Source: a virus. From it: a DNA stretch of 60,596 bases. A program made the translations under genes and the position numbers. Of this stretch, positions 638 through 20,655 are shown in pieces (within the stretch, counting starts at the first letter, position 1; each line of letters begins with the position of its first letter). The notes beneath the pieces are model-generated. The model saw only the letters and a program-made list of their open reading frames with translations, was not told the origin of the DNA and searched no databases. The stretch lies in IMG/VR virus record IMGVR_UViG_3300024308_000030, positions 1 to 60,596 of that record; one strand, written 5' to 3'.

Positions 638-877
638 ATGGCACTCGCCAAACTCCGCATCAACGAAACCGACGAGAACCGCGTCCGCAAGCTCAACGCC
701 CTCGTCGACGCGATCAACGCCCTCGGCGTCTCCTCCACCGGCACTATCGACGCGGCCAAGCTCACTGGCACCGTCGCCCCGGCACGCCTGCCCATCGCGA
801 CCGCCTCGACCCTGGGCGCCGTGAAAGACGGCACTGGCATCACCGTGGCCGCCGATGGCACCATGAGCGTACCGTAA
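638..877 (+). CDS. Small tail-fibre-like protein
   Basis: The product has 79 residues. After a helical N-terminus it carries ASTLGAVKDGTGITVAADGT and a DAAKLTGTVAPARLP segment. Both are typical of phage tail-fibre shafts, where short repeats of this kind form trimeric beta structures. It lies at the head of a run of fibre-type genes and probably contributes to or attaches the adsorption apparatus. GAGGA precedes ATG 638. The assignment rests on motif resemblance only. Confidence 0.5.
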   Translation: MALAKLRINETDENRVRKLNALVDAINALGVSSTGTIDAAKLTGTVAPARLPIATASTLGAVKDGTGITVAADGTMSVP

Positions 878-898
878 CGCTCATGGGGGCCGTAGAGC

Positions 899-2061: not shown

Positions 2062-2070
2062 GAGATCATC

Positions 2071-2589
2071 ATGGCCCAGGGCTTCATCGCCGTCGTGAGC
2101 GGCAAACTCAAGGTGCTGTTCGGCATCGCCAGCAGTGCTGGCGCTGGCGACGCGGGCAAGTACATCGTCACCGACGCCGGCGGCAAGCTGGACCCGAGCT
2201 TCCTGCCCAGCGGCATCGGCGCCAACCAGGTGGTGGCGACGGCCAGCGAGGCGTTGACCGCGGGGGACTTCGTGAACCTGTACCTGAACGCCGGTGCGCT
2301 GAACGTGCGCAAGGCCGACAACAGCAATAGCCGCGAGGCCTGGGGCTATGTCGAGGCCGCCGTGTCCAGCAGCGCCAGCGCCACGGTGAAGCGCCTCGGC
2401 ACCACCAACGCTTCGCGCACCGGCCTGACCATCGGCAGCGAGTACTGGCTGGGCACCGCCGGCGGCGTGATCAGCACCCCGCTGGACGCGAACGACACCG
2501 GCAACGCGGGCAAGATGGTCCAGTACCTGGGCATCGCGAAGTCCGCGACTGAGCTGGTCACCGCCGAGTTCCAGCCGGTACTCCTGTAA
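2071..2589 (+). CDS. Phage tail/capsid-decoration-like structural protein
   Basis: The product has 172 residues. The segment from about residue 55 (VVATASEALTAGDFVNLY, then EAWGYVEAAVSSSASATV, then GSEYWLGTAGGV and VQYLGIAKS) follows a pattern common in phage beta-rich fibre and decoration modules. AGGAGA precedes ATG 2071. Its TAA shares a base with the ATG of the next gene, suggesting coupled expression with the larger fibre. A structural role is likely, the exact place in the virion unknown. Confidence 0.5.
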   Translation: MAQGFIAVVSGKLKVLFGIASSAGAGDAGKYIVTDAGGKLDPSFLPSGIGANQVVATASEALTAGDFVNLYLNAGALNVRKADNSNSREAWGYVEAAVSSSASATVKRLGTTNASRTGLTIGSEYWLGTAGGVISTPLDANDTGNAGKMVQYLGIAKSATELVTAEFQPVLL

Positions 2590-3983
2590 TGCCCGGTCCG
2601 GTTCCGGTCGTCCTCGAGAACGGCAAGCCGAAGGTCTCCAGAGACCTTGGGTCTCTACTGCCGTTGCCGATAAGCACGACGCTGAACTACGCGTGGAAGA
2701 CCGGCACCGGGTGGGTGCAGCTGGGAACGGCCGCAGTCCAGGACGCAACCACCTCGGCGACCGACACTACGTCGGGCAGGCTGTGGCGAACCAACGACCT
2801 GGTCAAGCAGACTTCGACGGTCGATGCTACTACCGGCAGCGTGTTGTTGGTCGGGGGGTTCGGCATCGGCGTCCAGTTGGTCTCCACTGAGACCAACCTC
2901 GACAACTACCGCGCCGGTGGCAAATACATCACCCCGGCGTCGGGTCTAACCAACCTACCGCCAGGGTGGTCGCAAGGTCGCCACATCATCGAGGTAGCTG
3001 GCAGCAACTATTCGTCGCAGTTGGTGTTCGGCGGATCGGCTAGCTTCAGCCGCATAGCCAATCGGGTCTTCGCGCCCACGACGTCCACTTTCACCCCGTG
3101 GTACGACGTGCTGACAAATAACAGCCTCGTGCAGGGCACGGGGATAACCCTCACCTATAACTCTTCCACCGGCCAGGTAACCATCGCTACGTCGGGCGGG
3201 AGCAGTACGGGGATATCGACCAAGGCCAACTTCCAGACAAAAGTACTGAACGGTCTACTGGGGTACATTCCTCAGTTCGCGGACGTCGACATAGGTTGGG
3301 CCTGCGGCATCCTCAACACGAACACGCTGCCGTTGGGGTCGGGCTACTCGTCGAGCAATGCCGCGGACTACGCAGACGCATCTGAGAGCCTGCTGGCTAT
3401 CACGGGGACTGGTGCGTCCGTGAGCGGACGATCGCCGACGGTCCTCTCCACTGGGACCACTACCACGGGCACCGTCAACTGGTCGAACGGCCGCACGCTC
3501 GCCGGGATCATCAATGGTGGCTTGCGCTACAACCAGATGGCGTCGATGACCTACCAGTTCACCGGTAACATCCAGACCATCAGCACGGCTACGGATCGAT
3601 TCGTCTGCGAGATGGGCGTCACCAGCGGCGGCCTGTCCAGCAAGCAGGCGTGGTTCAGCTGTGTCGACAACGTAAACAGCGGACGCTGGCTGTTCAGCTA
3701 CGTCAACAACGCAGGATCGACGGTGACGGTCGACACGGGGATAACCCCCTCGGCTGGCGTCGACGTCGACGCGACCATCACCTGGACGTGGACCGGCAGC
3801 GCATTTACTCTGGTGGCGACGCTCAGCACGTTCACCAGCTCGACGCTGACCAGCCTGGTGGTGAACCTCAGCCTATCGTCGGTAATAGCCTGGAACCCCT
3901 ACATGAGCATCACGAAGTCGGCAGGGACCACGGCACGCGCGTTCAGGTTCCGCCGGCACCTGATGATTGGGACAGTGCAATGA
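2589..3983 (+). CDS. Tail fibre protein with pyocin-knob-like module
   Basis: The product has 464 residues. Residues about 105-180 (YRAGGKYITP, LPPGWSQGRHIIEV, FAPTTSTFTPWYDVL) resemble the pyocin knob domain of R-pyocin and phage fibres. The C-terminal part (residues about 235-464) is a Thr/Ser-rich beta-structured region that could be the receptor-binding tip. Ser/Thr/Gly richness and lack of charged residues fit a fibre. It is likely the main receptor-binding fibre of this cluster. The last bases overlap the start of the small terminase gene. Confidence 0.6.
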   Translation: MPGPVPVVLENGKPKVSRDLGSLLPLPISTTLNYAWKTGTGWVQLGTAAVQDATTSATDTTSGRLWRTNDLVKQTSTVDATTGSVLLVGGFGIGVQLVSTETNLDNYRAGGKYITPASGLTNLPPGWSQGRHIIEVAGSNYSSQLVFGGSASFSRIANRVFAPTTSTFTPWYDVLTNNSLVQGTGITLTYNSSTGQVTIATSGGSSTGISTKANFQTKVLNGLLGYIPQFADVDIGWACGILNTNTLPLGSGYSSSNAADYADASESLLAITGTGASVSGRSPTVLSTGTTTTGTVNWSNGRTLAGIINGGLRYNQMASMTYQFTGNIQTISTATDRFVCEMGVTSGGLSSKQAWFSCVDNVNSGRWLFSYVNNAGSTVTVDTGITPSAGVDVDATITWTWTGSAFTLVATLSTFTSSTLTSLVVNLSLSSVIAWNPYMSITKSAGTTARAFRFRRHLMIGTVQ

Positions 3984-4456
3984 ACATCAACACGCCAGAG
4001 CAGCTGATCCAGCTCGACAACCCGGTCTCGAAGACCAGTAAGCCCGCTTGGGACAAGCAGCTACTGGTCGACGTGGCCATCGGCACGTCGGAAATGGAGA
4101 TCCTCGAGGCCTACGACCTGCAGGCGCACCAGCTGCGCGAGATTCTCGAGGACAGCACGTTCCTCGTGGCGCTGGCCACCCTGAAAAAAGAGCTCGACAA
4201 GGACGGCATGAGCTTCAGGCTGAAGTGCCAGCTGCAGGCCGAGGCCATGCTCGAGGAAAACTGGATGCTCGCCCACGACCGCGAGAACGTGCCGGCCGAG
4301 ACCCGGCGCAAGGCGATTGCTGACACCGTCCGCTGGGCCGGCTTCGACAACCAGGGCGGCGCAAGCGGCCTCGGAGGCGGCGGTGGGTTCACCATCAACG
4401 TCATCACCGGCTCTTCTGGCCGGGCAGGCGTCACGATCGAGGGCGAGAAGGAATGA
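3980..4456 (+). CDS. terS: Terminase small subunit (putative)
   Basis: The product has 158 residues and directly precedes the large terminase, with start and stop codons overlapping as ATGA on both sides. Its size, the helical N-terminal half (DVAIGTSEMEILEAYDLQAHQ looks like a helix-turn-helix segment) and the Gly-rich flexible linker near residues 128-137 fit a small terminase that recognises packaging sites. Sequence alone does not prove the family, so position carries much of the weight. Confidence 0.65.
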   Translation: MNINTPEQLIQLDNPVSKTSKPAWDKQLLVDVAIGTSEMEILEAYDLQAHQLREILEDSTFLVALATLKKELDKDGMSFRLKCQLQAEAMLEENWMLAHDRENVPAETRRKAIADTVRWAGFDNQGGASGLGGGGGFTINVITGSSGRAGVTIEGEKE

Positions 4457-5844
4457 GCGTAAGCATTGACTACACGCCGGAGCCTATCGCCGACGCGTTC
4501 CTCCAGAGCGAGAAATTCTACAACTTCATCGTCGGTCCGGTAGGCTCGGCGAAGACCACGGCGATCCTGTTCAAGATCGTCTACCACGCCTCAAAACAGG
4601 CGCCCAGCCCGGTGGACGGTATACGCCGGACCCGGTGGGTTATCGTGCGGAACACCATGCAGCAGCTGAAGGACACCACCCTCAACTCGTTCTTCACCTG
4701 GTTCAAGCACGGCCAGGCCGGCACGTGGAAGGCGTCTACGAACACGTTCGTGTTTCGCTTCGCCGACATCGAGGCTGAGGTGTTGTTTCGTCCGCTCGAC
4801 ACCCCTGACGACGTCAGCCGGGTGTTATCGCTCGAGGTGACCGGCGCGATCCTGGACGAATTCGTCGAGATTCCCAAGGAGATCGTCGAATCGCTGTCTG
4901 GTCGCTGCGGCCGCTACCCGTCGAAGAAAGACGGCGGTGCCACCTGGTGGGGCATGTGGGGGGCGAGCAACCCGGGCAACGAGGACGACTGGTGGTACAC
5001 CTGGCTCTATGACCAGAAGCCGTCGAACATGGGGTTTTTCATCCAGCCGTCGGGGTTTTCGCCCGAGGCCGAGAACATCGAAAACCTGCCGGGCGGCCGC
5101 GGCTACTACACCAACCTGGCCGAAGGCAAGAGCCCGCAATGGGTCAAGCAGTTCATCGAGGTGAAGTGGGGCTACAGCATCCGCGGCAAGCCCATCTACA
5201 CCTCGTTCAACCCAGAGGTCCACGTCGCCAAGCAGCCGCTGCAGTTCAATCCGCATCTCCCTCTGGTGATCGGGTTCGACGCCGGCCTGACGCCGGCGGC
5301 CATCTTCGGCCAGCAAGACCCGCAGGGGCGCGTGCTGATCCTCCGCGAGCTGACCAGTGAGAACATGGGGGCGCGCCGGTTCTGCCGCGAGAAGATCCGA
5401 CCGCTGTTGAATCGCGAGTTCCGCGACGCCGACCTGGTCATTCAGGCGGACCCCGCGTGCGGTCAGCGGGCGCAGACCGACGAGCGCAGCGTCAGGCAGG
5501 TGCTGGAGGAAGAACTCGGCGTCCGCGTGTACCCGGCGCACAGCAACACGCTGACCGACCGCCTCGGCGCCGTCGACAGTCTGCTCACCCGGCTGGTGGA
5601 GGGCCAGGCCGCGTACCTGGTGGACCCGTCGTGCAAGGTGCTGATCCGTGGCTTTACGTCCGGCTACCGCTACCCGGTCAACAACAAGGGGGTCAAAGGT
5701 GACAGCCCGGAGAAAAACGCCTACTCTCACCCGCACGACGCCAACCAGTACCTGTGCATGATGTTCGAGCGCGACGCTATGCGCGAAGCGAAACGGCTCA
5801 AGATGCCAAAAATGCCGACCTACCGCAACAGCTACGTCTACTAG
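4453..5844 (+). CDS. terL: Terminase large subunit
   Basis: The product has 463 residues and is the DNA packaging motor. Walker A is GPVGSAKT at residues 28-35 and Walker B is GAILDEF with D135 and E136. The C-terminal RNase H-fold nuclease shows its acidic residues at D276 (VIGFDAG), D333 (IQADPACG) and D429 (HPHDANQ). Length and motif order are normal for the family. It overlaps terS by ATGA and is followed by the portal gene after 9 bases. Confidence 0.93.
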   Translation: MSVSIDYTPEPIADAFLQSEKFYNFIVGPVGSAKTTAILFKIVYHASKQAPSPVDGIRRTRWVIVRNTMQQLKDTTLNSFFTWFKHGQAGTWKASTNTFVFRFADIEAEVLFRPLDTPDDVSRVLSLEVTGAILDEFVEIPKEIVESLSGRCGRYPSKKDGGATWWGMWGASNPGNEDDWWYTWLYDQKPSNMGFFIQPSGFSPEAENIENLPGGRGYYTNLAEGKSPQWVKQFIEVKWGYSIRGKPIYTSFNPEVHVAKQPLQFNPHLPLVIGFDAGLTPAAIFGQQDPQGRVLILRELTSENMGARRFCREKIRPLLNREFRDADLVIQADPACGQRAQTDERSVRQVLEEELGVRVYPAHSNTLTDRLGAVDSLLTRLVEGQAAYLVDPSCKVLIRGFTSGYRYPVNNKGVKGDSPEKNAYSHPHDANQYLCMMFERDAMREAKRLKMPKMPTYRNSYVY

Positions 5845-5853
5845 GGATAAGCC

Positions 5854-8007
5854 ATGGCCGACGGCTCTCAAGACCCGGAAATCAAGGTAAGCCCGGATGC
5901 GCTTACAGCGCTCGGTCGTAACCTGCGGTCGAAGTTCACCCAGTACACGCGCGACCGCAGGCTGATCGAAGAGCAGTGGATGAAGAACCTCCGCCAGTAC
6001 CTCGGCCAGTACGACCCCGACCTGATCTCCAGGATGGACCCGCAGCAGAGCAGGGCCTACCCCAAGATCACCCGGGTCAAATGCGTGAGCATGGTTTCTC
6101 GGCTGACGTCGCTGCTGTTCCCCGCCGACGAGAAGAACTGGAGCCTGGAAGCCAGCCCGACCCCGAGCCTGCCGCCCGAAGCGCTGCAGGCAGCGATCGA
6201 CCAATGGATGGCCACCCACAACGGCTTCAACCTGGCCGACTTCGATATGGCCGTGGGCCGCTTTGCGGCGAACGCCGCGGAGAAGATGGAGGCCCAGATC
6301 GATGACCAGCTGGCGGACATCGCCGCCTATGGCCCGTGCGACTACCAGACCCTGGCGCGCCGCGTCGTGCGCTCGGCGGTGATCTACGGGCCGGGCATCA
6401 TGAAAGGCCCGATGACGCTGGCCGACACCCGCTCGGTCCCGGTAACGTTGCCCGACGGCCGCATCACTGTCGGTACGGAGACGACATATCGTCCCTACTT
6501 CGAGTACGTTTCGAACTGGGACTACTACCCCGACCTGGCTGCGAAGACCTTCGCGCAGATGGATGGGCAGTTCCAGCGCCACATATTCTCCCGACACCAG
6601 CTGCGAAAGCTGGCCGAGCGCGCCGACTTCCGCGGCAACGTCATCAACGACTACTTGCGCTCCCACGCGGATGGCAACTACACGCGCCAGACGTACGAGA
6701 CGGAGCTGCAGACCCTTGGCGAACAGACCAACGTCGTCGCCGACACCCGCAAGTTCGAGGTGGTCGAGTACTGGGGGTACGTCTCGGGCTACGAGCTGAG
6801 CCAGGCCGGCGTGAACATCGACGACAGCAAGCTGAACACCGAGCTGAAGGCCACGGTGTGGATGCTCGATGACGTCGTGATCAAGGCGGCCGAAGACCCA
6901 CTGCCGGAAGGCGCCTCGATGTACCACCAGTTCGTCTTCGAAGAAGACGACGTGAACCTCATGGGCACCGGCCTACCGGAAATCATGCGTGACAGCCAGA
7001 TGGCCGTGAGCATGGCGTCTCGCATGCTGATGGACAACGCGTCGGCTGTGTGCGGGCCCAACGTCGAGGTAGACTGGAACCGTCTCAGCCCCGGCCAGGA
7101 CACCACCATCAAGCCGTTCAAGGCGTGGATGGTGGAGCCTGACGCCTCGCAGGGTAATGCGCCAGCTGTGCGCCCGGTTAAATTCGACTCCAACCTCACC
7201 GAGCTGCAGGCCGTGGTCAAGATGTTCCTGGAGTTCGCGGACGCAGAGACGTTCGTCAACCCGATCACCGGTGGCGATATGGACGGTTCCGGTGAGGCGC
7301 TGCGCACGACCGGCAACATGTCCATGGTGCTTGGTAACGCGGCGCTGCCGTTCCGCGACATCGTGCGGAATTTCGACAAGTTCACGGTGAGCGCCATCCA
7401 TTCGCTGGTCGAGTGGAACATGGCGCTGAACCCGCGACGCGACATCGTCGGCGACCTTCGCCCGATCGGCCGTGGAGCGACTACACTGATCGCCAAGGAG
7501 ATCCGTGCGGCTGCGCTGGACAACCTGGCCAACACCTTGCTCGAGGAAGAGAAGGACTACATCGACTTCGGACAGCTGGCCAAACAGCGCCTGCTCTCGC
7601 GCGACCTGCCGCTGAACCAGATCATGGTCAGCGAGGAAGTCGCCAAGCAGCGCCAGGACGACAAGGCAAGCCAGGCTCAGGAAGCGCGCGACCAAGCCCG
7701 TCGGATGTTCGAAGAAGAGCTCAAGAACCTGGCGAGCGACTCGCTGAAGCAAGCGTCCCAGGCCCAGAAAAACGTCGACGCCGCGGACGTGGCTACTTTC
7801 AAAGCCGTCCTCGACGCGTTGGCCCAAGGAGTCAGCCCTCATGCAGTCGCTCGAGCAGCGCAACGAACTACGCCAGCAGCTGGCGGAAATCAAGAACAGC
7901 CACGAGGTCAAGCTGGTGGTGCAGTTCCTCCAGCACCAGATGAACCAGGAGCTGCAGGCATTGCTCAAGGCCTCCGACCCGGCGCAGCTGACGCGTTTAC
8001 AGGGTAA
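5854..8007 (+). CDS. Portal protein
   Basis: The product has 717 residues and sits between terminase and scaffold, the usual portal position. Features of podovirus head-tail connectors are visible: an N-terminal helix with RDRRLIEEQWMKNLRQYLGQYD, a VKCVSMVSRLTSLLFPADEKNW segment, and a long helical C-terminal crown from about residue 560. The last 55 residues are Ala/Pro/Gly-rich because this stretch also encodes another protein in the +1 frame (7841-8083). It would form the dodecameric DNA channel at one capsid vertex. Confidence 0.85.
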   Translation: MADGSQDPEIKVSPDALTALGRNLRSKFTQYTRDRRLIEEQWMKNLRQYLGQYDPDLISRMDPQQSRAYPKITRVKCVSMVSRLTSLLFPADEKNWSLEASPTPSLPPEALQAAIDQWMATHNGFNLADFDMAVGRFAANAAEKMEAQIDDQLADIAAYGPCDYQTLARRVVRSAVIYGPGIMKGPMTLADTRSVPVTLPDGRITVGTETTYRPYFEYVSNWDYYPDLAAKTFAQMDGQFQRHIFSRHQLRKLAERADFRGNVINDYLRSHADGNYTRQTYETELQTLGEQTNVVADTRKFEVVEYWGYVSGYELSQAGVNIDDSKLNTELKATVWMLDDVVIKAAEDPLPEGASMYHQFVFEEDDVNLMGTGLPEIMRDSQMAVSMASRMLMDNASAVCGPNVEVDWNRLSPGQDTTIKPFKAWMVEPDASQGNAPAVRPVKFDSNLTELQAVVKMFLEFADAETFVNPITGGDMDGSGEALRTTGNMSMVLGNAALPFRDIVRNFDKFTVSAIHSLVEWNMALNPRRDIVGDLRPIGRGATTLIAKEIRAAALDNLANTLLEEEKDYIDFGQLAKQRLLSRDLPLNQIMVSEEVAKQRQDDKASQAQEARDQARRMFEEELKNLASDSLKQASQAQKNVDAADVATFKAVLDALAQGVSPHAVARAAQRTTPAAGGNQEQPRGQAGGAVPPAPDEPGAAGIAQGLRPGAADAFTG

Positions 8008-9129: not shown

Positions 9130-10173
9130 ATGTCGTACAGCGGCACTACTTACGGCGACATTACCCCGCGTCAGGCGGCTTACTCGATCGCCAACCTGCT
9201 GAAGCGCGCGCTTCCGCTGCTGACCATCGAGAAGTTCGGCCAGACTTACCCCATTCCGAAGAACAACACCAAGGTCGCCAAGTGGCGCCGTTACTACATC
9301 GACGGCGGCACCGGTGCTTACTCTGGCGAGGCCGGCAATTACAGCATCCCGCTGGCGCTGACCCCGCTGGTCGAGGGCGTGACCCCCGCTGGTCAGCAGA
9401 TGGCGAACAAGGACTACACCGCTACCCTGGTGCAGTACGGCAACTACATCGAGTTCACCGACGTGATCCTCGACCTGCACGAGGACATGCCCGCGCTGCT
9501 GCGCGAGCTGACCGACATGCTCGGCGAGCAGATGGCGGTGACCATCGAGACTCTGCGGTTCAACGTGCTGAAGGCTGGCACCAACGTGTTCTACGCCAAC
9601 GGCAACGCCCGCAACGCCGTCAATACTGTGCTCACCCGCGAGCTGCAGATGCGCATCACCCGCGCGCTGAAGCGCCAGAACGCGATGACCATCACCTCGG
9701 TGGTGAAGTCCTCGGTGGCCTACAACACCCAGCCGATCGAAGCCTCCTTCGTTGCGCTGTGCCACCCGGACGTCGAGAACGACATCCGCAAAATGGACGG
9801 CTTCGTGTCGACCAAGCACTACGCGTCGATCACCCCGATGGAAGGCGAGATCGGCTCGGTGGACGACGTGCGCTACATCCGCTCGACCGTATTCGCATCC
9901 TTCCCGGATGCGGGCGGCGCAGCTGGTGGCACCGTGCTGTCGACCACTGGCTCCTCGGCCGACGTCTACCCGGTGCTGTTCATCGCGCGCGACGCCTATG
10001 GCCTGGTGCCGCTGAAAGGCGACAACGTGGCCAGCGTGATGGTCGTACAGCCGAAGCCGACCAACGTCGACCCGCTGGCTCAGCGCGGCACCGCCGGCTG
10101 GAAAGTGTGGAACGCCACCGTCATCCTGCAGGATGCCTGGCTGATCCGCGCCGAAGTCGCTGCGAGCGTATAA
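9130..10173 (+). CDS. Major capsid protein, N4-gp56 type
   Basis: The product has 347 residues. The order of segments (PIPKNNTKVAKWRRY near the N-terminus, then LVEGVTP, YTATLVQYGNYIEFTDVI, and the later CHPDVENDIRKM and GFVSTKHYA) matches the N4 gp56 family of HK97-fold capsid proteins. AAAGGAGATAGACC gives a very strong ribosome binding site. A rho-independent terminator follows after 14 bases, as expected for a highly expressed gene. Confidence 0.9.
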   Translation: MSYSGTTYGDITPRQAAYSIANLLKRALPLLTIEKFGQTYPIPKNNTKVAKWRRYYIDGGTGAYSGEAGNYSIPLALTPLVEGVTPAGQQMANKDYTATLVQYGNYIEFTDVILDLHEDMPALLRELTDMLGEQMAVTIETLRFNVLKAGTNVFYANGNARNAVNTVLTRELQMRITRALKRQNAMTITSVVKSSVAYNTQPIEASFVALCHPDVENDIRKMDGFVSTKHYASITPMEGEIGSVDDVRYIRSTVFASFPDAGGAAGGTVLSTTGSSADVYPVLFIARDAYGLVPLKGDNVASVMVVQPKPTNVDPLAQRGTAGWKVWNATVILQDAWLIRAEVAASV

Positions 10174-11682: not shown

Positions 11683-12734
11683 TGGCCGACAACCGCAGAA
11701 CGGTAGGCAACTACTACGGGGTCAACGAAGACATCCCGATGATCCCCGGTGTGGCCGACCCGTACGCCACGGATTATGACGCTCAGCTCGGCTTGGGCCT
11801 CACTGCGGCCATCGAGGACAACCAGGCGGATATCGCCAAGCGCCAGGCTGCGGCAGTCGCAGCGAACAACGCGCGGCGCGCCGCCCAGGCAGCCCCTGGG
11901 GCCCCGACCCCTATCGCCGGACCGACTAACGCGGCTGGACGCCAGAACGCGTTCGATGTGACCAACACCAGCACGGTCGACGCCGCCGGCAACGTTACTA
12001 GCAACCTGGCGCAACCAGTCGGTGCTGGCCTCACCATGGGGTTCGGCGGCGGGAACGAGACTGCCACCCAGTACCTGCAGCGCATGCAGCAGAGCGACCA
12101 GCAAGCCGCACTGAACCGCCAGCGCACTCAGCTTCTGGACCGTTTTACCGCTGCGCAGGACAACCTCAGTGCGGATTCGTCGATCGGCGAGATCGGCGCT
12201 GCGCGCGCGCAGCTGGCCGGACTGACCCCGCTGCTCGGCGCAACCACTGGTGCTACTGCTGACCTGGCGCGCACCGACGTTGGCGCCAGCGCTGACCTGG
12301 CCCGGGCGAACATCGGCGCGGCCGCGGCAATCCAGGAACGCGCCCTGGCCAACGCAGGACAGCTCGCCGCCGTCGACTTGACCGGCCAGTACGGCCTGCA
12401 GGAAGCCAGCACGCGCGGACAGGCTGCTGTAGGTGCGGCCCTGGCCAAGGCGTCGCTCGACGCCAACACTGGCAAGAACCAGAAGGCAGCGCAAGAAGCG
12501 CAGCTGCTGCAGCTGCGTGAGGCCCTCGCGCTGCAAGCGCTCGAGAACGGCGAACCTGAACGCGCGGCGGCGCTGGCTAGCGGTGCTACTCCGGCTACTC
12601 CGAAGCTGATCAACGACAACCTCGGCCTGCCATATGCCAAGCAGATGCCGGACGGTAGTATCGTTGCGCTGAGCCCGACCGAACTGGCGCAGCTCGCAGC
12701 GGCAAGACAACAACTGGCCACCGGGGGCGAGTAA
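11682..12734 (+). CDS. Internal virion/ejection protein (Ala-rich, helical)
   Basis: The product has 350 residues. It is very rich in Ala, Gln and Asn, with long helices such as AAIEDNQADIAKRQAAAVAA and a pseudo-repeat region around residues 190-220 (TADLARTDVGASADLARANI). Ahead of a giant ejection protein this composition fits a DNA-ejection or core protein. Start and stop codons overlap with both neighbours, implying fixed expression ratios. Confidence 0.6.
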   Translation: MADNRRTVGNYYGVNEDIPMIPGVADPYATDYDAQLGLGLTAAIEDNQADIAKRQAAAVAANNARRAAQAAPGAPTPIAGPTNAAGRQNAFDVTNTSTVDAAGNVTSNLAQPVGAGLTMGFGGGNETATQYLQRMQQSDQQAALNRQRTQLLDRFTAAQDNLSADSSIGEIGAARAQLAGLTPLLGATTGATADLARTDVGASADLARANIGAAAAIQERALANAGQLAAVDLTGQYGLQEASTRGQAAVGAALAKASLDANTGKNQKAAQEAQLLQLREALALQALENGEPERAAALASGATPATPKLINDNLGLPYAKQMPDGSIVALSPTELAQLAAARQQLATGGE

Positions 12735-15700
12735 TGGCGGCGCAGACCAACTACGCGGATATCGTCGCCAGGGCTTATCAGCTCCAGGCTGAACGTCAAG
12801 CGCAGCAGGCAGCCGACGCTGAGACGCAGCAGGCGGAACTGCTGCGCCAGCGCGACGCCACGCGCAGCCGAACATTCGGCGAAGTCGCGCAAGACGTTGG
12901 ACTGCAGCTGACCCAAGGCGTGGTGGGTCTGGGGCAGGCGCTCTATGGGGCTGGGAACCTGGCAACCCTGGGCCTGCTCGACCGTGGCGCAGGGATTTCG
13001 CGAGACTTCGCGGAGACCAACCAGATTCTGCAAGGAGCCAAGTCTGCCCCGACGCAGGCGCGCGCGGCCGAAGCTCAGCGCGCGTTCGATGAGGAAGGCG
13101 TAGCGGCAGGCCTGGGGGCGTACGTCACCAGTCCAGCGCTGCTGCAAGATCTGGTAGTGAGCAACGCACCGTCGCTGATCCCCGGCGTTGCTGTGGCCGG
13201 TCGCGCTGGCCGTGTGGCAGCCGCGGCGACTACTGGCTTGGAACAGGCTGCCGCGTCCAAGCTGATTCGCGAAGCGGCTACTACGGCCGCAGTGCGGACC
13301 GCCGGTGCGCAAACCGCAGGCGCTACCAACGTCGACGCGATCAACGCCATACGCGACGCAGGCGGTGGTGAAGACCTCCAGCAGTTCGGCGGTGTCGGCG
13401 CGGGCTTGCTGGCCGGCCTGGCTACTCCTGCGCTGAGCCGTCTTACTGGCGCCGGCGCGCTGGAAGCGGCAGCAGCCAACGCCCTCAACCCAGCCACACG
13501 CGCTGCGTTCCAGACCGGTGCCGGCGGTGTCGCTCGCGGCGTGGCCGGTGGTTTCCTCCGCGAAGGTACGGAAGAAGCTGCGCAGTCGTCCGTGGAGCAG
13601 CTGGCGCAGAACTTGTTCGCGCCTGGCGTCGACCTTGGCCAAGGCGTCGGTCAGGCCGCGGCCCTCGGTGGTTTGGCTGGCGGCCTGCTCGGCGGCGGCC
13701 TCGGCGCTGTGTCTTCCAGCCCGCGCCAGAGCAGTGGCCTGCGCGACCAGATTGAGTCGACGCTGAACGAGTTCTCTGCCGAACAGGCTGCGCCTGACGC
13801 CCAGGGCGAACTGCGGGGGCTGCGCGGCGTTCTCGGTCGTCGGTTCGTGCAGCCAGTGAGCAACGCGCCGGTGCCTGAGCCTACCGGGCTGAACGCGGCA
13901 ATGCAGCGTGTGCGCGCGGAGCAGGCGTACGTGCAGAACCTGCCGAACATGCTGCCGGAGATCAACAGCGACACCGGCCCGCTACCCTACGACAACCTGG
14001 GCGAAGTGCAGACCGACGTGGGCCTGCCGACCCCCGACGTCGAAGAACTCACCGGCGCCCGCGCGGCGATCGCTCGCGTGCGGGCCCAAGCGATTCCCCA
14101 GATGCAGGTAGAAGAACTGCCTGTTGAAACGGTCGACGCTGCGGCCGCGCCGCGTACCGGCAGCCTGCTTGACGCGATCGCGTCGACTCGCGCTCGCCAA
14201 GGGCAGCTGGGCGGCACCGACCTGCTTGGCGGGCCGCTGGCTGACCAGGGTGCGTTCTTCCGCGCCGCCGAAGAGCCGGGCGCAGCTCCGGTGTTGGCCC
14301 AGGTGCCGGCCGAGGTCCAGCCGCCGCTGCCGTTCGACCGGCCTATCCCGAGCTGGAAGTCGTTCCTGGCGAAAGACCTCGGCTTGAAAGCTGCGAACTT
14401 CCGCGGCGCGGCATGGACCCAGTTCGAGCAAGCGGCGGCAGCCAGCGGCATCCGCCCAACAGACCCTGGTGCTGTCGAGTTCCTGCGCCAGGTAGGTGGT
14501 CAGCTGGGTGCTGACGAAGCTCGCGCCCCGCTCTTTGCAGCAAAATTGGCCGAGCGGTACGCCGCTCAGCCGCCAGTCCCTGCCATGGACGCCAACGGAG
14601 CAGCCGAGCAGCCCGCCCTGGGCGCCGCGCCGGAAGCTGCTCCGAGCCTCGAACAGCAGGTGGTGGACCAGGTCGAATCTTCTGTCGAACAAGTTCCGCG
14701 GGTGACGAACGTTAAGCAGGTGAGATCTGGCTACGCGGATGAAGGCACGTACTACGAAGTCGCTATGGATGACGGTCGCAGCGCCCGTGTTTACCGCCAG
14801 GCAGGCGATGGCGGTGTCCAACTGTCGGGGTGGTACTACGCTCCCGAGGGAGCCGAGCGCGGCGTTTATTTGGGTGAGACCAGAAAAGACGCGCTGGACG
14901 CACTCCCGAGAGCGCTTGGTACTAACTCTGCCGCGCTCGCTCCGGTCGTAGGGGAGATCGACAACGCAGTTTCCCAGCGCGCCGCAGATCTCCAAGACCT
15001 AGTGGACGCCGAAGGCCAGGGCAAGAACAACCTGGTCCCAGCCGCGCGCCGCGTCCTCGCCGACAGCGTCGAGTCGGCCACGACCATCGCGGACCTTGAA
15101 CTGCTGCGCCAGGCCTCGGAAATGGTGCAGAGCATGACTCGGCTCTCGCCGGCGGCGCGCCGCACGATGTTCGAAGACCGCGCCGTGAAGATCGCTTCCG
15201 AGTCGCTCAGCGGCGCGCCGGACACCGACCAGCTGGACGCGGTGTACAACTCGCTGATCCAGACCGAGGCCTTCAAGGCGCTCCCGCAAGCCAAGCAGGA
15301 CGAACTCGTCAACACCTACAGCCAGAGCTACGACCGCTTCGAGCTGGGCAAATTCAGCCGCGCCGAGGCGCCCGTCACGACCCCGCTGAAAACCGAGACG
15401 TTCGCCGAACTGGTCGCCAACGCGTCCCGCCTTGGCACCCCAGTGGTTGCTCACGACAACGTCGCCGCGTTCAAGAACGCTACTGGCCACACGGCGCCGG
15501 CCGACGCCAACGGCGTGTACATCGGCGACCAGCTGCACCTGATCCGCCAGAACATCGGCTCCGCGAAAGAGCTGGCCATGGTGCTGGCGCACGAACGGGG
15601 CCACCAGGGGCTGGCCGGCCTGCTCGGCGACCGTCTGCCGGCGGTGACCAACCGTCTGTGGGCCAACGCCGCACTGCGCAAGCGTATCAAGGGCAAGATG

Positions 15701-18700
15701 GACACCGGCCTCGACCGCTCCACCGCTGCCGAAGAAGTCCTCGCAGATATGCTGGCTGGCGGCGAGCGCCTCACCGGCGACGTCACGTCCAAGCTACGCG
15801 CCGGCGTGGACAACCTGTTCGCCAAGATCTTCGGCTACAGCAAGTACCAGGTGCCGTCGAAGGACGTGGACACCCTGCTGAAAGATACCGTGGCGTACCA
15901 GCGTGCGCGTATCGCCGGTCAGGGCAGCGCCATCGACCCGAACAACCCGCTGACCAACGAAGAGGCGATGGCCGAGCTCGACCGCATGCTGGGTGACCCC
16001 GGGCGCATCGGCGGCCAGCCGCTGTACTCGCGCGCCCTCGACGACATTCAGACGGCGATCGCCGGCGCCAACGGCACGACCTCTCCGCGCACGCTCCAGG
16101 ACGGTGTCAAGGCGGCGTACGACGCGGGTAAGCAGACCGCCAAGGGCATCGGCGAGTCGTTCACCGTGGGCGGCGTGTTCTCGCGCCTGCTGGACGCCGT
16201 GCCGCTCAACCAGATGAACAATCTCTATGGCGACCTGCTGAGTGACGGCGACCGCAAGCCGCTGGCCGATTTCGCTCGGTTCAAACGTGCCAAGGAAGCG
16301 ACGTACAACAAGACCCTGACCGAGGACCGTCCGGTCAAATACGGCAGCGAGCAATTCAACACTGGCCCCATGAGCCTGGCCCAGGAGTGGGACAAGTTCG
16401 CGCGCGACAGGTCCACTGCGAAAAAGGCCGAGGCGCTCAACACGCTGCAGCAGAACGCTACGCTGTACCGGGTGTTCCCCGACCGCAAGTGGTCCGAGCA
16501 GTCCGACCTCAACTACAACGACTTCAGCTTCACCGAAGCCGAGCGCAAGGCCGCGCACGCCAAACTCAGCGAGCTCTACACCTCGCTGGGCAAGACCGGC
16601 CAGGAGCTGTACAAGAAGTCGCAGGGGGTCTACTCGGACCTGTGGAACCGCCGGTTTGAGGCCCTGGCCAATGAGCTGTCGCGGGTCACTGGTGCGCCGC
16701 GCGACTCGGAGCTGTTCAAGCAGCAGTACGGCCGCACCATCGACACCGCGCTCAACAAGATGCGCACCGGTCCGTACTCGCCGTTGCAGCGCTACGGCGA
16801 TTACCTGGTGACCGTGCGCGACAAGCAGGGCAAGATCGCCTGGTTCTCCGGTCACGAGAGCGCAGCGGAAGCCGACGCTGTGGCCGCGCAGCTGCGCAAG
16901 GGCCAGTACGCCAGCACGAGCGATTACAAGGTGAACCGCACGGTGCGCCAGAAGTTCGACTGGAACCTGGACGGCATCAACGACGCGACCATCAAGAAGC
17001 TGGAAGGGTCGGTGGACGCTGCGCTACCCAACGAGTCGCAGGCCCAGCTGCGCAACGAGCTGCGCAAAGGGCTCGTAGAGGCCTACCTGCAGTCGCTCCC
17101 GCAGCAATCGTTCCTGCAGCACGCCAACGTACGCAAAGGCGTCGAGGGTGCCACTGCCGACGCCTTCCGGGCGTTCAACGACTACTCGACCAAGGCGGCC
17201 CGCAACATCGCGGCGCTCCAGTACGACGGCCAAATCAGCAACAAGCTGACCGAGCTGCAGCAGTTCGTCACCGAGAAGGCCCAGACCGAGCCGGACTCGA
17301 ACACCAGCAAGATGCAGCAGGTGGTGAACGCCATCAAGACCCAGCACGCAGCGTCCCTGCGCGCCGAGCAGACGCCCATCGTCGACTGGCTGACCCAGGC
17401 TGGCTTCGTCATGTACATGACCTCGCCCAGCCAGATGTTCATCAACGCCATGCAGACACCCATGGTGGCCATTCCTCGCCTGGTGGGCAAGTACGGCACC
17501 ACTGGCGCCTTGCGCGCGTTCAAGGGCGCCCTGGACACGTTCGTGCGCAGCCGCGGCAATATGCTCGGCGCGCGCTCGACGGTCGCTGAGGGCAGCCTGG
17601 AGCGTCAGGTGCTGGACCAGTTGCAACAGCGCGGCGTCCTCGACTTCACCCAGGCACATGACCTCACGGGTCTGGCGCGCGGCGACAACGCAGCGATGTC
17701 CGGCCACTGGCGCACAGCGATGAACGTCATGTCGCTGGCGATGAACAAGTCCGAAGTGTTCAACCGCCAGGTCACGGCATACGCTGCCGCGCAGCTGGAG
17801 GCGCAGAAGCTCGGCCTGCAGCCAGGTGCCAGGCCTACCCCGGCGCAGCTGGCGCAGATCACCGACGCCGCAGAAGACGCGGTCTACGACACCCAGTTCG
17901 ACTACTCCCAGTCGAATAAGCCGACGATCATGCAGGGGCCGCTGGGCAAGCTGGCGCTGCAGTTCCAGCAGTACCGGTTCAACATGCTGGCCATGATCGC
18001 CAAGGACATTCGCGACAGCTTCACCGGCACCCCCGAAGAGAAGGCCACCGCGCGCCGTACCCTGGCCTGGACCCTGGGCATGCAGGCAGCCTTCGCCGGC
18101 GCCGCCGGCACCGTGCTCTCGCCGATCGCGTTCGCTATCGCAGACGCGTTCCGGGATGACGACGACCTGCTCGACAGCCAGACCGAGTTCGCGCGTTCGG
18201 TCCCGCAATGGTTGTCGCACGGCCTGCTGTCTGGCGCGCTGGACACCAGCCGCCTGAGCGCTGCCACCCTGATTCCGTACTTCGGCGACAAGGAGTACGA
18301 GCCGAAAGACGCCACCGCCAAGGAGGTGTTCCAGTACCACGCCATGCGCAACCTCGGCCCGTGGCTGGGCCTGGGCGCTGCGTGGTCGGATGGTGCTGCG
18401 AAAATGCTCGACGGCGATGTCGCCGGCGCCCTGAAGTCCGCCGCTCCGAAACCCTTCGCCGACGCCCTCAAGGCCTACACTGACGCCGGCGGCGCTAAGG
18501 ACGCGCGGCAGGTCAGCTACTTCGATCCGAATGTCTGGGACACCGTGACGGCGGCAGTTGGTCTGAAGAGCGGCTCGCGCGCCGAGGCGGAAGAGACCCG
18601 CGGCGCGACCTACGAGGCGACCAAGCGCATCAGCACGGTCAAGCAGCGCTACCTGAACCAGCTGGCTATCGGCCAATCGACGGGTGACAGGGAACTGGTG

Positions 18701-18880
18701 CAGGAAGCCATGGCCAAAATCCAGGCGTGGAATGCTTCCGTCCCCGACCAGGCCATCAAGGCACAGGACATTCGCCGGGCAACGGTGCGCCAGGCACGGA
18801 GCCAGTCGAACGCTGACGCGTTCGGTACTCCGCTGTCTCTGCCGCCGAGCCCCTCTGTTCGAGCAGCAGTTGGCATATAA
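12734..18880 (+). CDS. Giant polyvalent internal virion protein with HExxH motif
   Basis: The product has 2048 residues, the largest in the genome, and probably forms the injected internal core. The first 400 residues are Ala/Gly-rich with membrane-active-looking segments (GAYVTSPALLQDLVVSNAPS). Around residues 946-965 the sequence AMVLAHERGHQGLAGLLGD carries an HExxH zinc-protease motif (H953, E954, H957) with possible third ligands E1000/E1001. The C-terminal part from about residue 1540 (TSPSQMFINAMQTP, FDYSQSNKPTIMQGPLG, LQFQQYRFNMLAMIAKDIRD) resembles the large polyvalent protein-associated domain LPD38 found in phage ejection proteins. Such proteins are thought to enter the cell with the DNA. 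Whether the protease motif is active is unknown. Confidence 0.75.
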   Translation: MAAQTNYADIVARAYQLQAERQAQQAADAETQQAELLRQRDATRSRTFGEVAQDVGLQLTQGVVGLGQALYGAGNLATLGLLDRGAGISRDFAETNQILQGAKSAPTQARAAEAQRAFDEEGVAAGLGAYVTSPALLQDLVVSNAPSLIPGVAVAGRAGRVAAAATTGLEQAAASKLIREAATTAAVRTAGAQTAGATNVDAINAIRDAGGGEDLQQFGGVGAGLLAGLATPALSRLTGAGALEAAAANALNPATRAAFQTGAGGVARGVAGGFLREGTEEAAQSSVEQLAQNLFAPGVDLGQGVGQAAALGGLAGGLLGGGLGAVSSSPRQSSGLRDQIESTLNEFSAEQAAPDAQGELRGLRGVLGRRFVQPVSNAPVPEPTGLNAAMQRVRAEQAYVQNLPNMLPEINSDTGPLPYDNLGEVQTDVGLPTPDVEELTGARAAIARVRAQAIPQMQVEELPVETVDAAAAPRTGSLLDAIASTRARQGQLGGTDLLGGPLADQGAFFRAAEEPGAAPVLAQVPAEVQPPLPFDRPIPSWKSFLAKDLGLKAANFRGAAWTQFEQAAAASGIRPTDPGAVEFLRQVGGQLGADEARAPLFAAKLAERYAAQPPVPAMDANGAAEQPALGAAPEAAPSLEQQVVDQVESSVEQVPRVTNVKQVRSGYADEGTYYEVAMDDGRSARVYRQAGDGGVQLSGWYYAPEGAERGVYLGETRKDALDALPRALGTNSAALAPVVGEIDNAVSQRAADLQDLVDAEGQGKNNLVPAARRVLADSVESATTIADLELLRQASEMVQSMTRLSPAARRTMFEDRAVKIASESLSGAPDTDQLDAVYNSLIQTEAFKALPQAKQDELVNTYSQSYDRFELGKFSRAEAPVTTPLKTETFAELVANASRLGTPVVAHDNVAAFKNATGHTAPADANGVYIGDQLHLIRQNIGSAKELAMVLAHERGHQGLAGLLGDRLPAVTNRLWANAALRKRIKGKMDTGLDRSTAAEEVLADMLAGGERLTGDVTSKLRAGVDNLFAKIFGYSKYQVPSKDVDTLLKDTVAYQRARIAGQGSAIDPNNPLTNEEAMAELDRMLGDPGRIGGQPLYSRALDDIQTAIAGANGTTSPRTLQDGVKAAYDAGKQTAKGIGESFTVGGVFSRLLDAVPLNQMNNLYGDLLSDGDRKPLADFARFKRAKEATYNKTLTEDRPVKYGSEQFNTGPMSLAQEWDKFARDRSTAKKAEALNTLQQNATLYRVFPDRKWSEQSDLNYNDFSFTEAERKAAHAKLSELYTSLGKTGQELYKKSQGVYSDLWNRRFEALANELSRVTGAPRDSELFKQQYGRTIDTALNKMRTGPYSPLQRYGDYLVTVRDKQGKIAWFSGHESAAEADAVAAQLRKGQYASTSDYKVNRTVRQKFDWNLDGINDATIKKLEGSVDAALPNESQAQLRNELRKGLVEAYLQSLPQQSFLQHANVRKGVEGATADAFRAFNDYSTKAARNIAALQYDGQISNKLTELQQFVTEKAQTEPDSNTSKMQQVVNAIKTQHAASLRAEQTPIVDWLTQAGFVMYMTSPSQMFINAMQTPMVAIPRLVGKYGTTGALRAFKGALDTFVRSRGNMLGARSTVAEGSLERQVLDQLQQRGVLDFTQAHDLTGLARGDNAAMSGHWRTAMNVMSLAMNKSEVFNRQVTAYAAAQLEAQKLGLQPGARPTPAQLAQITDAAEDAVYDTQFDYSQSNKPTIMQGPLGKLALQFQQYRFNMLAMIAKDIRDSFTGTPEEKATARRTLAWTLGMQAAFAGAAGTVLSPIAFAIADAFRDDDDLLDSQTEFARSVPQWLSHGLLSGALDTSRLSAATLIPYFGDKEYEPKDATAKEVFQYHAMRNLGPWLGLGAAWSDGAAKMLDGDVAGALKSAAPKPFADALKAYTDAGGAKDARQVSYFDPNVWDTVTAAVGLKSGSRAEAEETRGATYEATKRISTVKQRYLNQLAIGQSTGDRELVQEAMAKIQAWNASVPDQAIKAQDIRRATVRQARSQSNADAFGTPLSLPPSPSVRAAVGI

Positions 18881-18910: not shown

Positions 18911-19219
18911 ATGGAAGACTTCTTGCGCGAAGTCAGGCAGTGGGCCCAGATGGGCCTCCTGGCAGCATTCGGAGGCGCGGCCAGCTACCTGTACACCATG
19001 GTCACGAAGAACAAGAAGTTCGTGTGGCTGACCTTCAACATCAACCTGTTCCTCGCGTTTTTCGTAGGGCAGTCCCTTGGCGGCTTCATCCCGCCGGACA
19101 CCAAGAACTTCGGCGGGTGGCTCATGATGCTGGGGTTCTGCGCTTACCCAGCGCTGGGCCTGGTCGAAAACAAGGTACTCGCCTACCTGGACAAACGCAT
19201 GGGAGCCCGAGGTGAATAG
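18911..19219 (+). CDS. Holin, LydA-like
   Basis: The product has 102 residues with membrane segments at about residues 13-32, 38-55 and 67-85. The pattern AAFGGAASYLYTMVTKNKKFVW followed by NLFLAFFVGQSLGG resembles LydA-family phage holins. Charged residues cluster at both ends. A GGGGGGAG ribosome binding site precedes ATG 18911. It would form the inner-membrane lesion that releases the endolysin, and it heads a compact lysis block. Confidence 0.7.
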   Translation: MEDFLREVRQWAQMGLLAAFGGAASYLYTMVTKNKKFVWLTFNINLFLAFFVGQSLGGFIPPDTKNFGGWLMMLGFCAYPALGLVENKVLAYLDKRMGARGE

Positions 19220-19220
19220 C

Positions 19221-19532
19221 ATGCTCGTCGTGACCGTCCTCACTACGCTGATCCACGCGTTCGTCATCGCCAAGGCCGTGACGTTCTTCAGGGTTAACGG
19301 CCCCTGCCGCGAGAGCGACAAGACCATCGTGGCGATGCTGGGGGCCCTCAGCGCGATGTTCATCCTGGCCCAGGTGCTGGTCACCGTCGACAACTTCGGA
19401 CGCGTGCTCACTACGAGCCTCGCGTCGGCGCTGCTGATGGGGTTCAACTTCTCCAACGCGTTCTTCTACCTGGCCCAGATAAAGGTGCTCACCGACCGTA
19501 GGAGCTACAACGCGTGCCAACGCTATCGCTGA
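19221..19532 (+). CDS. Second holin-like membrane protein
   Basis: The product has 103 residues with three hydrophobic segments (residues about 1-17, 32-55 and 63-85). I chose ATG 19221 because GAGGTG sits 6 bases upstream; GTG 19212 would be inside that ribosome binding site. It lies between the first holin and the spanin gene, so an antiholin or pinholin role is plausible. I do not recognise a named family. Confidence 0.6.
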   Translation: MLVVTVLTTLIHAFVIAKAVTFFRVNGPCRESDKTIVAMLGALSAMFILAQVLVTVDNFGRVLTTSLASALLMGFNFSNAFFYLAQIKVLTDRRSYNACQRYR

Positions 19533-19891
19533 GCCAGTGGATCGCGGTAGGCGCAGTGGTCGCGGCCGCTGCAGGCGGCTGGTACGCGCGCGGTGTCGTG
19601 GCGGACAACGACATGTTGGCCTACAAGCAAGGCCTCTATGACCAGGCAAACGACCAGCGTATCCTGCGCGCCAAGGTGGAAGCTGCGCAGACAGCGGTGA
19701 CCGCCGACAGCACGGAGCGCGTCAACCAGTCTCAGAAGGCCCAGGCCGAGACAGTCCGAGTGGTGACCAAGGAGATCGTCCGGTATGTGCAGAACCCTGA
19801 TCATGGCAAGTGCGTGCTTCCTGCTGATTTCGTGTGGGGGTACAACCGCTCCCTTGGTGTCCCCGGAGTGCCCGAGACCGCAGCTCCCTGA
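19514..19891 (+). CDS. i-spanin (Rz-like)
   Basis: The product has 125 residues from GTG 19514, with TAGGAG upstream. It has one N-terminal membrane anchor (residues about 8-22) followed by a periplasmic helix with DQANDQRILRAKVEAAQ and KAQAETVRVVTKEIVRYVQ. This is the layout of an inner-membrane spanin. It overlaps the o-spanin frame by 107 bases. Together they would fuse the two membranes at the last step of lysis. Confidence 0.8.
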   Translation: MPTLSLSQWIAVGAVVAAAAGGWYARGVVADNDMLAYKQGLYDQANDQRILRAKVEAAQTAVTADSTERVNQSQKAQAETVRVVTKEIVRYVQNPDHGKCVLPADFVWGYNRSLGVPGVPETAAP

Positions 19892-20057
19892 CCAGCGGCT
19901 ACTGGAGGCGCCCGAGGACTACGAGCCCATAACCGCGGGCACCGACGTCGACGTCTACCCGACGATCGTCCGCAACAACCTGGTGTGCCGAGTGTCGCGA
20001 GACACCCTGGTAGAGCTGCAGCGATGGACAAAGGAGCAACACGATGCGACTCACTGA
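19785..20057 (+). CDS. o-spanin lipoprotein (Rz1-like)
   Basis: The product has 90 residues, and the first third is encoded inside the Rz-like gene in another frame. A short lipoprotein signal ends in the lipobox LISC with Cys at residue 17. The mature part is Pro-rich at its start. AAGGAG lies about 10 bases before ATG 19785; ATG 19803 is an alternative start. It would be anchored in the outer membrane and pair with the i-spanin. At 90 residues it is longer than typical Rz1 proteins. Confidence 0.75.
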   Translation: MCRTLIMASACFLLISCGGTTAPLVSPECPRPQLPDQRLLEAPEDYEPITAGTDVDVYPTIVRNNLVCRVSRDTLVELQRWTKEQHDATH

Positions 20058-20655
20058 CGCCCAATTCAAAGCCCTGTTCCCGAAGGCTGACGAGGAGCTG
20101 CTGCCCTTCCTCAACCGGACCATGGTCCGCTACCGCATCGACACCGCCGTGCGCATGGCGGCGTTCCTGGCGCAGGTCGGGCACGAGAGCGCAGGGCTCA
20201 CCCGGTTCGAAGAGAACCTGAACTACAGCGCCGAGGCGCTGAAGCGCGTGTGGCCGGCACGGTTCCAGGGCGTGGACGCCAACGCCTACGCGCGCAAACC
20301 GGAGAAGATCGCCAACTTCGTGTACGCCGACCGGCTGGGTAACGGCGGCGAAGCCACCGGTGACGGCTGGCGTTACCGCGGCCGGGGCCTGATCCAGATC
20401 ACCGGCAAGGCCAATTACGCGTCGATGGGCAAGGCCCTCAGCGCTGATTTCGTGGGGCACCCGGACCTGGTACTGACGCCGGAGTACAGCTGTTTGACGG
20501 CTGGCGAGTACTGGGGTCGCAACGGCCTCAACAACTTCGCCGACGTGGGCGATTTCCGCGGACTCACCAAGCGGATCAACGGCGCCTTGACCGGCGTGGA
20601 CGACAGGCTGCAACGGTGGGAAGCAGCCAAGCGGGTGCTCAATGCAAGAGGGTAA
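20044..20655 (+). CDS. Endolysin, GH19 chitinase-like family
   Basis: The product has 203 residues. The GH19-type catalytic region shows FLAQVGHESAGLTRFEENLNY with the expected acids E48 and E57, followed by YRGRGLIQITGKANY and a GLTKRINGALTG segment. There is no signal peptide, so it depends on the holin to reach peptidoglycan. AAAGGAG precedes ATG 20044. It overlaps the o-spanin stop and the next tail gene. Confidence 0.9.
   Translation: MRLTDAQFKALFPKADEELLPFLNRTMVRYRIDTAVRMAAFLAQVGHESAGLTRFEENLNYSAEALKRVWPARFQGVDANAYARKPEKIANFVYADRLGNGGEATGDGWRYRGRGLIQITGKANYASMGKALSADFVGHPDLVLTPEYSCLTAGEYWGRNGLNNFADVGDFRGLTKRINGALTGVDDRLQRWEAAKRVLNARG

What the first reader, a model, noticed from the sequence alone, without database searches (positions are those of the whole stretch)
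12734..18880. Giant ejection protein with a possible zinc protease
Seen: a 2048-residue protein with HERGH (H953, E954, H957) followed 43 residues later by EE, and an LPD38-like C-terminus. Known: polyvalent phage proteins carry effector domains that enter the cell with the DNA. Inference: it may deliver a protease that acts on the cell envelope or on a defence protein immediately on infection.
Basis: partly seen in the sequence, partly recalled or inferred. Interest (0 to 1): 0.5.

Follow-up and report, generated by a model that had tools for sequence, protein, structure and literature searches.

The report
Zinc-protease domain in giant phage protein
A giant protein that a bacterial virus probably injects with its DNA carries a well-conserved zinc-protease domain of a known kind, which more likely trims the giant protein itself than attacks the host.

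Summary
The 2048-residue ORF has one HExxH (HERGH 953-957) and EE at 1000-1001, 43 residues on. The "LPD38-like" label was not met; Pfam finds LPD39 at 1153-1330 and NCBIfam a PLxRFG tail at 1346-2028. The zincin reading is supported: HExxH/HExxxH and EEvLaDM occur in all 80 rows examined (partly selected by motif), and the model is confident with zincin-like topology. Fold-search scores are individually weak. Polyvalent-protein zincins were described in 2017 (PMC5512222), so this is a new member of a known kind, absent from Pfam. The envelope/defence target is not supported. In a scan keyed only on the tail, 71 of 72 proteins of at least 1,700 residues carry a metallopeptidase motif 1,000-1,900 residues before the C terminus: 52 zincin, 19 JAMM, none both. 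The JAMM type is one clade nested among zincin types with a JAMM-like predicted fold. A peptidase tied to the tail, whatever the cargo, favours processing in cis of the giant protein. No cleavage was shown.

The parts
12734..18880 (+). Giant PLxRFG/DarB-like polyvalent protein, 2048 aa
12854..13723 (+). [quoted passage not shown]
   Evidence: (E 3.4e-16); function in injection inferred from N4 vRNAP as described in PMC5512222
14654..15373 (+). Variable, gappy linker (aa 641-880), no invariant residue in 14 complete relatives; candidate region for cleavage (inference)
15440..15880 (+). Zincin-like metallopeptidase domain (aa 903-1049), highest density of invariant residues in the protein
15590..15604 (+). 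HERGH: two predicted zinc ligands H953, H957 and predicted general base E954
15731..15736 (+). EE (1000-1001) of AAEEVLADM; predicted third zinc ligand lies here
16190..16723 (+). LPD39 domain (aa 1153-1330)
   Evidence: E 2.4e-10
16769..18817 (+). PLxRFG C-terminal tail (aa 1346-2028)
   Evidence: E 5.8e-112
4453..5844 (+). Terminase large subunit (context)
5854..8007 (+). Portal / head-tail adaptor-like protein (context)
9130..10173 (+). Major capsid protein (context)
18911..20655 (+). Lysis genes: holin-like, Rz-like spanin, endolysin (context)

Best explanation
The ORF is a stripped-down member of the PLxRFG/DarB-like polyvalent ejection proteins. It has an N-terminal leader, a variable linker, a zincin metallopeptidase, LPD39 and a ~700-residue tail. 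The zincin binds zinc through H953, H957 and a glutamate of the 1000-1001 pair, with E954 as base. It most likely cuts the giant protein itself (or copies of it) around the border between the N-terminal part and the LPD39/tail module, during head maturation or on ejection, so that the leader/cargo is freed from the tail that serves packaging. Shown: the motif, its conservation, the predicted topology and the fixed place beside the tail. Inferred: zinc binding, proteolysis, the self-cleavage and its timing, the packaging role of the tail, and ejection.
For: Invariant H, E, H and EEV..DM across 54 aligned relatives; H953, E954, H957, E1000, E1001, D1005 also invariant in 14 complete relatives, where the zincin core has 15.3% invariant positions against 8.5% in the tail, 5.4% in the leader and 0-0.5% in the linkers. 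AlphaFold2 model with pLDDT 93-98 over the core. Fixed place: in 23 proteins the HExxH lies 1126 +/- 35 aa from the C terminus, while its distance from the N terminus ranges from 826 to 3781. Tail-only scan: 49 of 72 zincin and 19 of 72 JAMM in the 1,000-1,700 aa slot, 0 both, 3 more zincin at 1,752-1,900, 1 none; control windows of about the same length: 2 zincin and 1 JAMM of 194. Replacement of a zincin by an unrelated JAMM-fold domain on one branch suggests that peptide-bond cleavage is the shared property. Breaks just upstream of the slot: F116 has cargo and zincin+tail as two genes; L016 has an in-frame TAA there. PMC5512222 (passages) proposes autoproteolysis for these domains and reports that P1 DdrB is cleaved before packaging.
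Against: No cleavage has been shown here. PMC5512222 says N4 vRNAP, with a comparable HEXXH domain, is packaged uncut. No other enzymatic domain was recognised in this protein, so it is unclear what would need release. The zincin-to-JAMM change is one event on the tree, so the Fisher p-values overstate the evidence. In the zincin sisters of the JAMM clade (L105, L122) the zincin lies 1,244-1,283 aa from the end and an ADP-ribosyltransferase-like stretch sits near where the JAMM lies (by eye), so 'same slot' is approximate. RadC-type JAB domains in polyvalent proteins were proposed to act on nucleic acids. The L016 stop and the L106 frame break may be sequence errors.
Confidence: 0.5

Rival explanations
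1. Host-directed effector: the zincin is injected and cleaves a host envelope or defence protein.
For: No other enzyme domain is recognised in this protein, so the protease could be its effector; PMC5512222 allows this role for some of these domains.
Against: Presence and place next to the tail hold whether or not other cargo is present, which an effector would not need. The domain is the most conserved part of the protein within the clade, not the most variable. No target was found.
Confidence: 0.2
2. Morphogenetic protease acting in trans on other head proteins (scaffold, capsid, portal), carried into the head by the tail.
For: The gene lies downstream of portal and capsid genes; no separate head protease was recognised among the ORFs searched, although not all ORFs were searched.
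Against: Few copies per virion are expected (recalled); the link to LPD39 and tail does not require it; no processing of the capsid protein was tested.
Confidence: 0.12
3. Structural zincin: the fold and its metal site are kept for packaging or stability, with little or no proteolysis in the virion.
For: N4 vRNAP is packaged uncut although the region is required for encapsidation (PMC5512222).
Against: Strict conservation of the general-base glutamate E954 as well as the ligands, and replacement by another peptidase-type fold.
Confidence: 0.15

Closest known systems
Zincin-like MPTase domains of polyvalent proteins (Iyer et al. 2017, PMC5512222)
   Same: HEXXH or HEXXXH helix, second helix with a zinc-binding glutamate, three-stranded sheet, placed inside giant phage proteins with LPD domains; both motif spacings were described there.
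   Different: This domain matched no Pfam family, and which of the paper's 12 clades it falls in could not be tested; its fixed place before the PLxRFG tail and the JAMM replacement were not found in the passages and sections read.
PLxRFG / DarB-like giant proteins (NF032893; phages PBC5, Parlo, SopranoGao, F116)
   Same: Same C-terminal tail, and in most the peptidase slot before it.
   Different: Large members can carry methylase, helicase, hydrolase and other domains (e.g. Atu_ph08); this one has none recognised and is about half the length.
N4 virion RNA polymerase
   Same: N-terminal match (phrog_2206) and, per PMC5512222, a HEXXH domain at aa 2130-2448 within a long C-terminal region needed for encapsidation.
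   Different: No RNA polymerase domain was recognised here; the tails were not compared.
Peptidase family M49 (dipeptidyl peptidase III)
   Same: HEXXGH/HEXXH alternation and a downstream EE..(A)D ligand motif (PMC5805324, passages), like HExxxH/HExxH and EEvLAD here.
   Different: M49 enzymes are two-domain exopeptidases of about 550-740 aa; this is a ~150-aa module. No M49 match by sequence; likely convergence.

Membership tests
Zincin-like MPTase of polyvalent proteins | HEXXH (or HEXXXH) active-site motif, conserved | tested here: met
   HERGH 953-957; H, E, H invariant in 54 rows and all 80 rows carry 5- or 6-residue forms (28 and 52); retrieval of most rows used one of two motif patterns
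Zincin-like MPTase of polyvalent proteins | Glutamate on a second helix as third ligand | tested here: met
   EE invariant, in helix 158-171 of the model; distances between side chains not measured
Zincin-like MPTase of polyvalent proteins | Core of helix, three strands, HEXXH helix, Glu helix | tested here: met
   H50-61, E67-70, E88-93, E96-100, H107-119, H158-171
Zincin-like MPTase of polyvalent proteins | Structural match to solved zincins | tested here: inconclusive
   Foldseek best E 0.4; VIA Z 4.8 or less, with many zincins (LTA4H, IRAP, ERAP1, collagenase G, MATCAP, lethal factor, PprI, ArdC; that these are zincins is recalled) among 50 rows
Zincin-like MPTase of polyvalent proteins | Zinc-dependent proteolysis | not testable with these tools
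   needs an assay
Polyvalent ejection protein | Giant multidomain phage protein with LPD domains encoded among virion genes | tested here: met
   LPD39, PLxRFG tail, terminase/portal/capsid upstream and lysis genes downstream
Polyvalent ejection protein | Present in the virion and ejected into the host | not testable with these tools
   inferred; a DarB-like protein was found in JC1 virions (PMC9144972, passages), but its kinship with this tail was not tested
LPD38 | Pfam LPD38 match | tested here: not met
   none at E<=1 for the whole protein nor at E<=10 for aa 1323-2048
LPD39 | Pfam LPD39 match above gathering score | tested here: met
   40.8 bits against cut-off 27
Peptidase M49 | M49 family match by sequence | tested here: not met
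   no M49 hit in Pfam (nor among the 25 of 39 families shown)
JAMM/JAB (for the alternative slot domain in relatives, not the window) | E...HxHP...S..D and JAB fold | tested here: met
   E87, H131, H133, S140, D143 invariant in 15 rows; model pLDDT 85.9; most of the top structural rows are JAMM proteins, best Z 7.4 PfJAMM1, RadC 5.7; Foldseek E 0.014 at best

The most novel reading that the evidence does not exclude
PLxRFG-tailed ejection proteins have a nearly obligatory metallopeptidase slot about 1,100 residues before the C terminus. The slot usually holds a zincin (several kinds, HExxH or HExxxH). In one clade that includes phages of Sinorhizobium and Agrobacterium the zincin was replaced once by a JAMM-fold domain. 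If so, a JAMM peptidase works outside ubiquitin-like systems as a processing protease of a virion protein, and cleavage at this border is a general step in maturing or unloading these giant proteins.
Probability: 0.4. Interest if true: 0.6.

Novelty: new member of a known kind. Interest (0 to 1): 0.42.

Why it matters
The protease itself is of a kind predicted in 2017 but, in what I read, not assayed in the phage giants of this tail type. The position rule and the zincin-to-JAMM replacement give a comparative reason to expect processing in cis and name simple tests: compare the protein's size in virions of zincin-type and JAMM-type phages. If true it would explain how giant ejection proteins are unloaded from their packaging tail.

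Tried and rejected
Pfam, NCBIfam, PHROGs and PDB sequence searches gave no curated family for the zincin region itself above threshold (M48 at E 0.13 was sub-threshold). PHROGs phrog_14770 (unknown function) matched 32 of 54 relatives but not the window. A scan of genome contigs for the domain found none. An M49 origin was considered because of HEXXGH...EE..AD and rejected as unsupported by sequence. A picture of many independent zincin/JAMM changes was considered and rejected: the tail tree needs only one change for the JAMM type (quick tree with long branches), so the Fisher tests are phylogenetically naive. The JAMM motif was first seen by eye in an alignment and then tested. Neither motif: L170 (none in the slot), L171 (none in its 1,684-aa ORF; a HExxxH lies near the end of the ORF upstream), and L150, L174, L176 (short ORFs). 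Of 78 tail loci, 6 with ORFs under 1,700 aa were dropped before the count (L099, L106, L150, L171, L174, L176). Of the 52 zincin calls, 37 were also matched by my zincin profile at i-E 0.01 or better; the others rest on the motif alone. Several loci are near copies (52 clusters at 70% identity; L110 and PBC5, and L160 and PEp14, have identical tails). In one search the HExxH and HExxxH forms need only 1 change, but 6 HExxH rows sit beside the HExxxH rows and the dividing branch has weak support. F116 (HExxH 1,270 aa from its C terminus) was left out of the 23 proteins. Fold search of the zincin model: no hit with E at or below 0.001 in PDB; 9 in the viral library, none of them named a peptidase, several annotated as large polyvalent proteins.

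Full report
The ORF. Window 12734-18880 (+) encodes 2048 residues without a stop. It lies in a virion gene block: terminase, portal-like, capsid and structural genes upstream, holin-like, spanin and endolysin genes downstream. Its best named relative is Pseudomonas phage Rollin protein WNV50603 (40.7% identity over 62% of the protein), annotated there as an oligopeptide transporter protein, which the present evidence does not support. Other phages share mainly its C-terminal part (70 records in all, none covering 80%). The window's record is a virus record of 60,596 bases with no host given.

The motif. HERGH 953-957 is the only HExxH and EE 1000-1001 follows 43 residues later. In 5000 shuffles 21 HExxH arose, 2 with EE at similar distance. 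Rollin (HEMGH) and L004 (HESAH), found by whole-protein comparison and not by the motif, keep both parts. A scan of viral contigs with the domain alignment gave 96 relatives, 80 kept. Of the 80 rows I examined (79 loci of that list plus Rollin; L006, a copy of the window's sequence, left out) all carry HExxH (28) or HExxxH (52) followed by an EE. The scan patterns were EEVL[AV]DM or an AHE..H.G pattern, so each row was selected for at least one of the two parts. In an alignment of 54 sequences H, E, H, G and EEV..DM are invariant.

Two spacings. HExxH and HExxxH forms occur in one homologous domain. On a tree of 67 rows the window's copy (L002) falls in a fully supported group of 21 HExxH rows; 40 HExxxH rows and 6 further HExxH rows form the other side. 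The HEXXXH form was already described in polyvalent proteins (PMC5512222, passages). M49 peptidases show the same alternation (PMC5805324, passages); I regard this as a parallel only.

The fold. The model of residues 838-1112 has mean pLDDT 85.8, 93-98 over the core, and the order helix, strand, helix, strand, strand, HERGH helix..., EE helix, which is the topology PMC5512222 gives for these domains. Foldseek found nothing significant in PDB (best E 0.4). A second alignment of its candidates gave Z up to 4.8, below the level at which a match means much, but many rows are zincins of separate families, including the antirestriction protein ArdC of plasmid R388. Among viral models 9 hits reached E 0.001, several of them annotated as large polyvalent proteins. 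I had no coordinates, so ligand geometry was not measured.

Architecture. NCBIfam places a PLxRFG tail at 1346-2028 and Pfam LPD39 at 1153-1330. [quoted passage not shown] Among 14 complete relatives the leader, the zincin and the tail are conserved and 361-880 is variable; invariant positions make up 15.3% of 881-1050, 8.5% of the tail, 5.4% of 41-320 and 0-0.5% of 321-880. Eleven of these 14 were retrieved only through the motif patterns, which raises the zincin figure somewhat.

A peptidase next to the tail. In 23 proteins, 16 of the window's group and 7 giants from named phages, the HExxH lies 1126 +/- 35 residues (1065-1207) from the C terminus, while the N-terminal distance runs from 826 to 3781. 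Two giants, Atu_ph08 and PBC5, lack HExxH but have an H-x-H-P...S..D motif 1126 residues from the end. I then scanned viral contigs with an alignment of the tail only. Of 78 new loci, 72 have ORFs of at least 1,700 residues: 49 have a zincin motif and 19 a JAMM motif between 1,000 and 1,700 residues from the C terminus, none has both, and 4 neither; 3 of these 4 have HExxxH at 1,752-1,900. Of 194 control windows of the same proteins 2 had the zincin motif and 1 the JAMM motif. Of the 52 zincin calls, 37 also match the zincin profile.

The JAMM form. E87, H131, H133, S140 and D143 are invariant in 15 rows (15 of the 20 JAMM-bearing slots listed, near copies left out). The model (pLDDT 85.9) is closest to JAMM proteins: PfJAMM1 Z 7.4, AMSH-type enzymes 6.0-6.7, RadC 5.7, with a cytidine deaminase at 5.7 too; Foldseek's best E is 0.014. 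Pfam shows only sub-threshold RadC in 2 of 15. On a quick tree of the tails the JAMM rows are one group nested among zincin rows (support 99). So it is one replacement, and the association tests (p 7.5e-14; 2.2e-7 by clusters) must not be read as independent evidence. PMC5512222 assigns RadC-type JAB domains of polyvalent proteins to nucleic-acid work (section 16 read).

Natural breaks. In phage F116 a leader-bearing protein annotated as a methyltransferase and a protein with HExxH motifs and tail are adjacent genes. In contig L016 (the same contig as L099) an in-frame TAA separates leader from zincin-tail. In L106 the break before the JAMM is a frame change with overlap. The last two may be sequence errors. 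Breaks on the other side also occur: in L076 and L057 the tail is in a separate, overlapping frame.

Reading. A peptidase that stays beside the tail while the cargo changes, and that was replaced by another peptidase-like fold, is better explained by a task on the giant protein itself than by a host target. This is the autoprocessing idea of PMC5512222, here with position and replacement as new support. Against it stand the uncut packaging of N4 vRNAP and the lack of any recognised cargo enzyme in the window protein. JC1 virions contain a DarB-like 4515-aa protein (51 peptides, 15.6% coverage; PMC9144972, passages); whether it is cut was not reported in the passages seen, and its kinship to this tail was not tested. 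P1 virions contain DarB and DdrB (PMC9024508, passages).

Print search. Searches for 'polyvalent proteins' with zincin, PLxRFG with phage, JAB domain with polyvalent proteins, DarB-related terms, LPD39 and JAMM with bacteriophage, metallopeptidase and virion listed no paper whose listing, or whose passages where I looked (PMC5512222 also sections 16 and 29; PMC7824862, PMC10910872), describes the slot or the replacement. Subscription journals are mostly not held.

Noticed in passing
window 46910-48049 (-) and 48578-49687 (-): A DUF2201 protein (putative metallopeptidase plus VWA domain) close to a phage ATPase family gene; resembles the MoxR-vWA-metallopeptidase pair described for jumbo phages in PMC7824862 (passages), here in a ~60-kb phage record. 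A second possible peptidase of this phage.
   Followed up: no
L105, L122, L170 (stretch about 900-1300 aa before the C terminus): ADP-ribosyltransferase-like sequence (HGT...FGWGLYF in L105 and L122; VYHGT...F in L170) lies between the peptidase position and the tail in some tail-bearing giants; seen by eye only.
   Followed up: no
L016:8719-8721 (same contig as L099): In-frame TAA between the leader-bearing part (755 aa) and the zincin-tail part (1250 aa).
   Followed up: partly
L171:1-5001: The ORF upstream of a peptidase-free tail ORF holds a HExxxH zincin-like motif near its end, as if the protein were split between peptidase and tail.
   Followed up: partly
window 40160-40795 (-): HNH endonuclease gene next to the family-A DNA polymerase gene at 37906-39984 (-).
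   Followed up: no
OR577172.1 15452-22006 (L005): The relative in phage Rollin is annotated as an OppA oligopeptide-binding protein, which the sequence evidence does not support.
   Followed up: no
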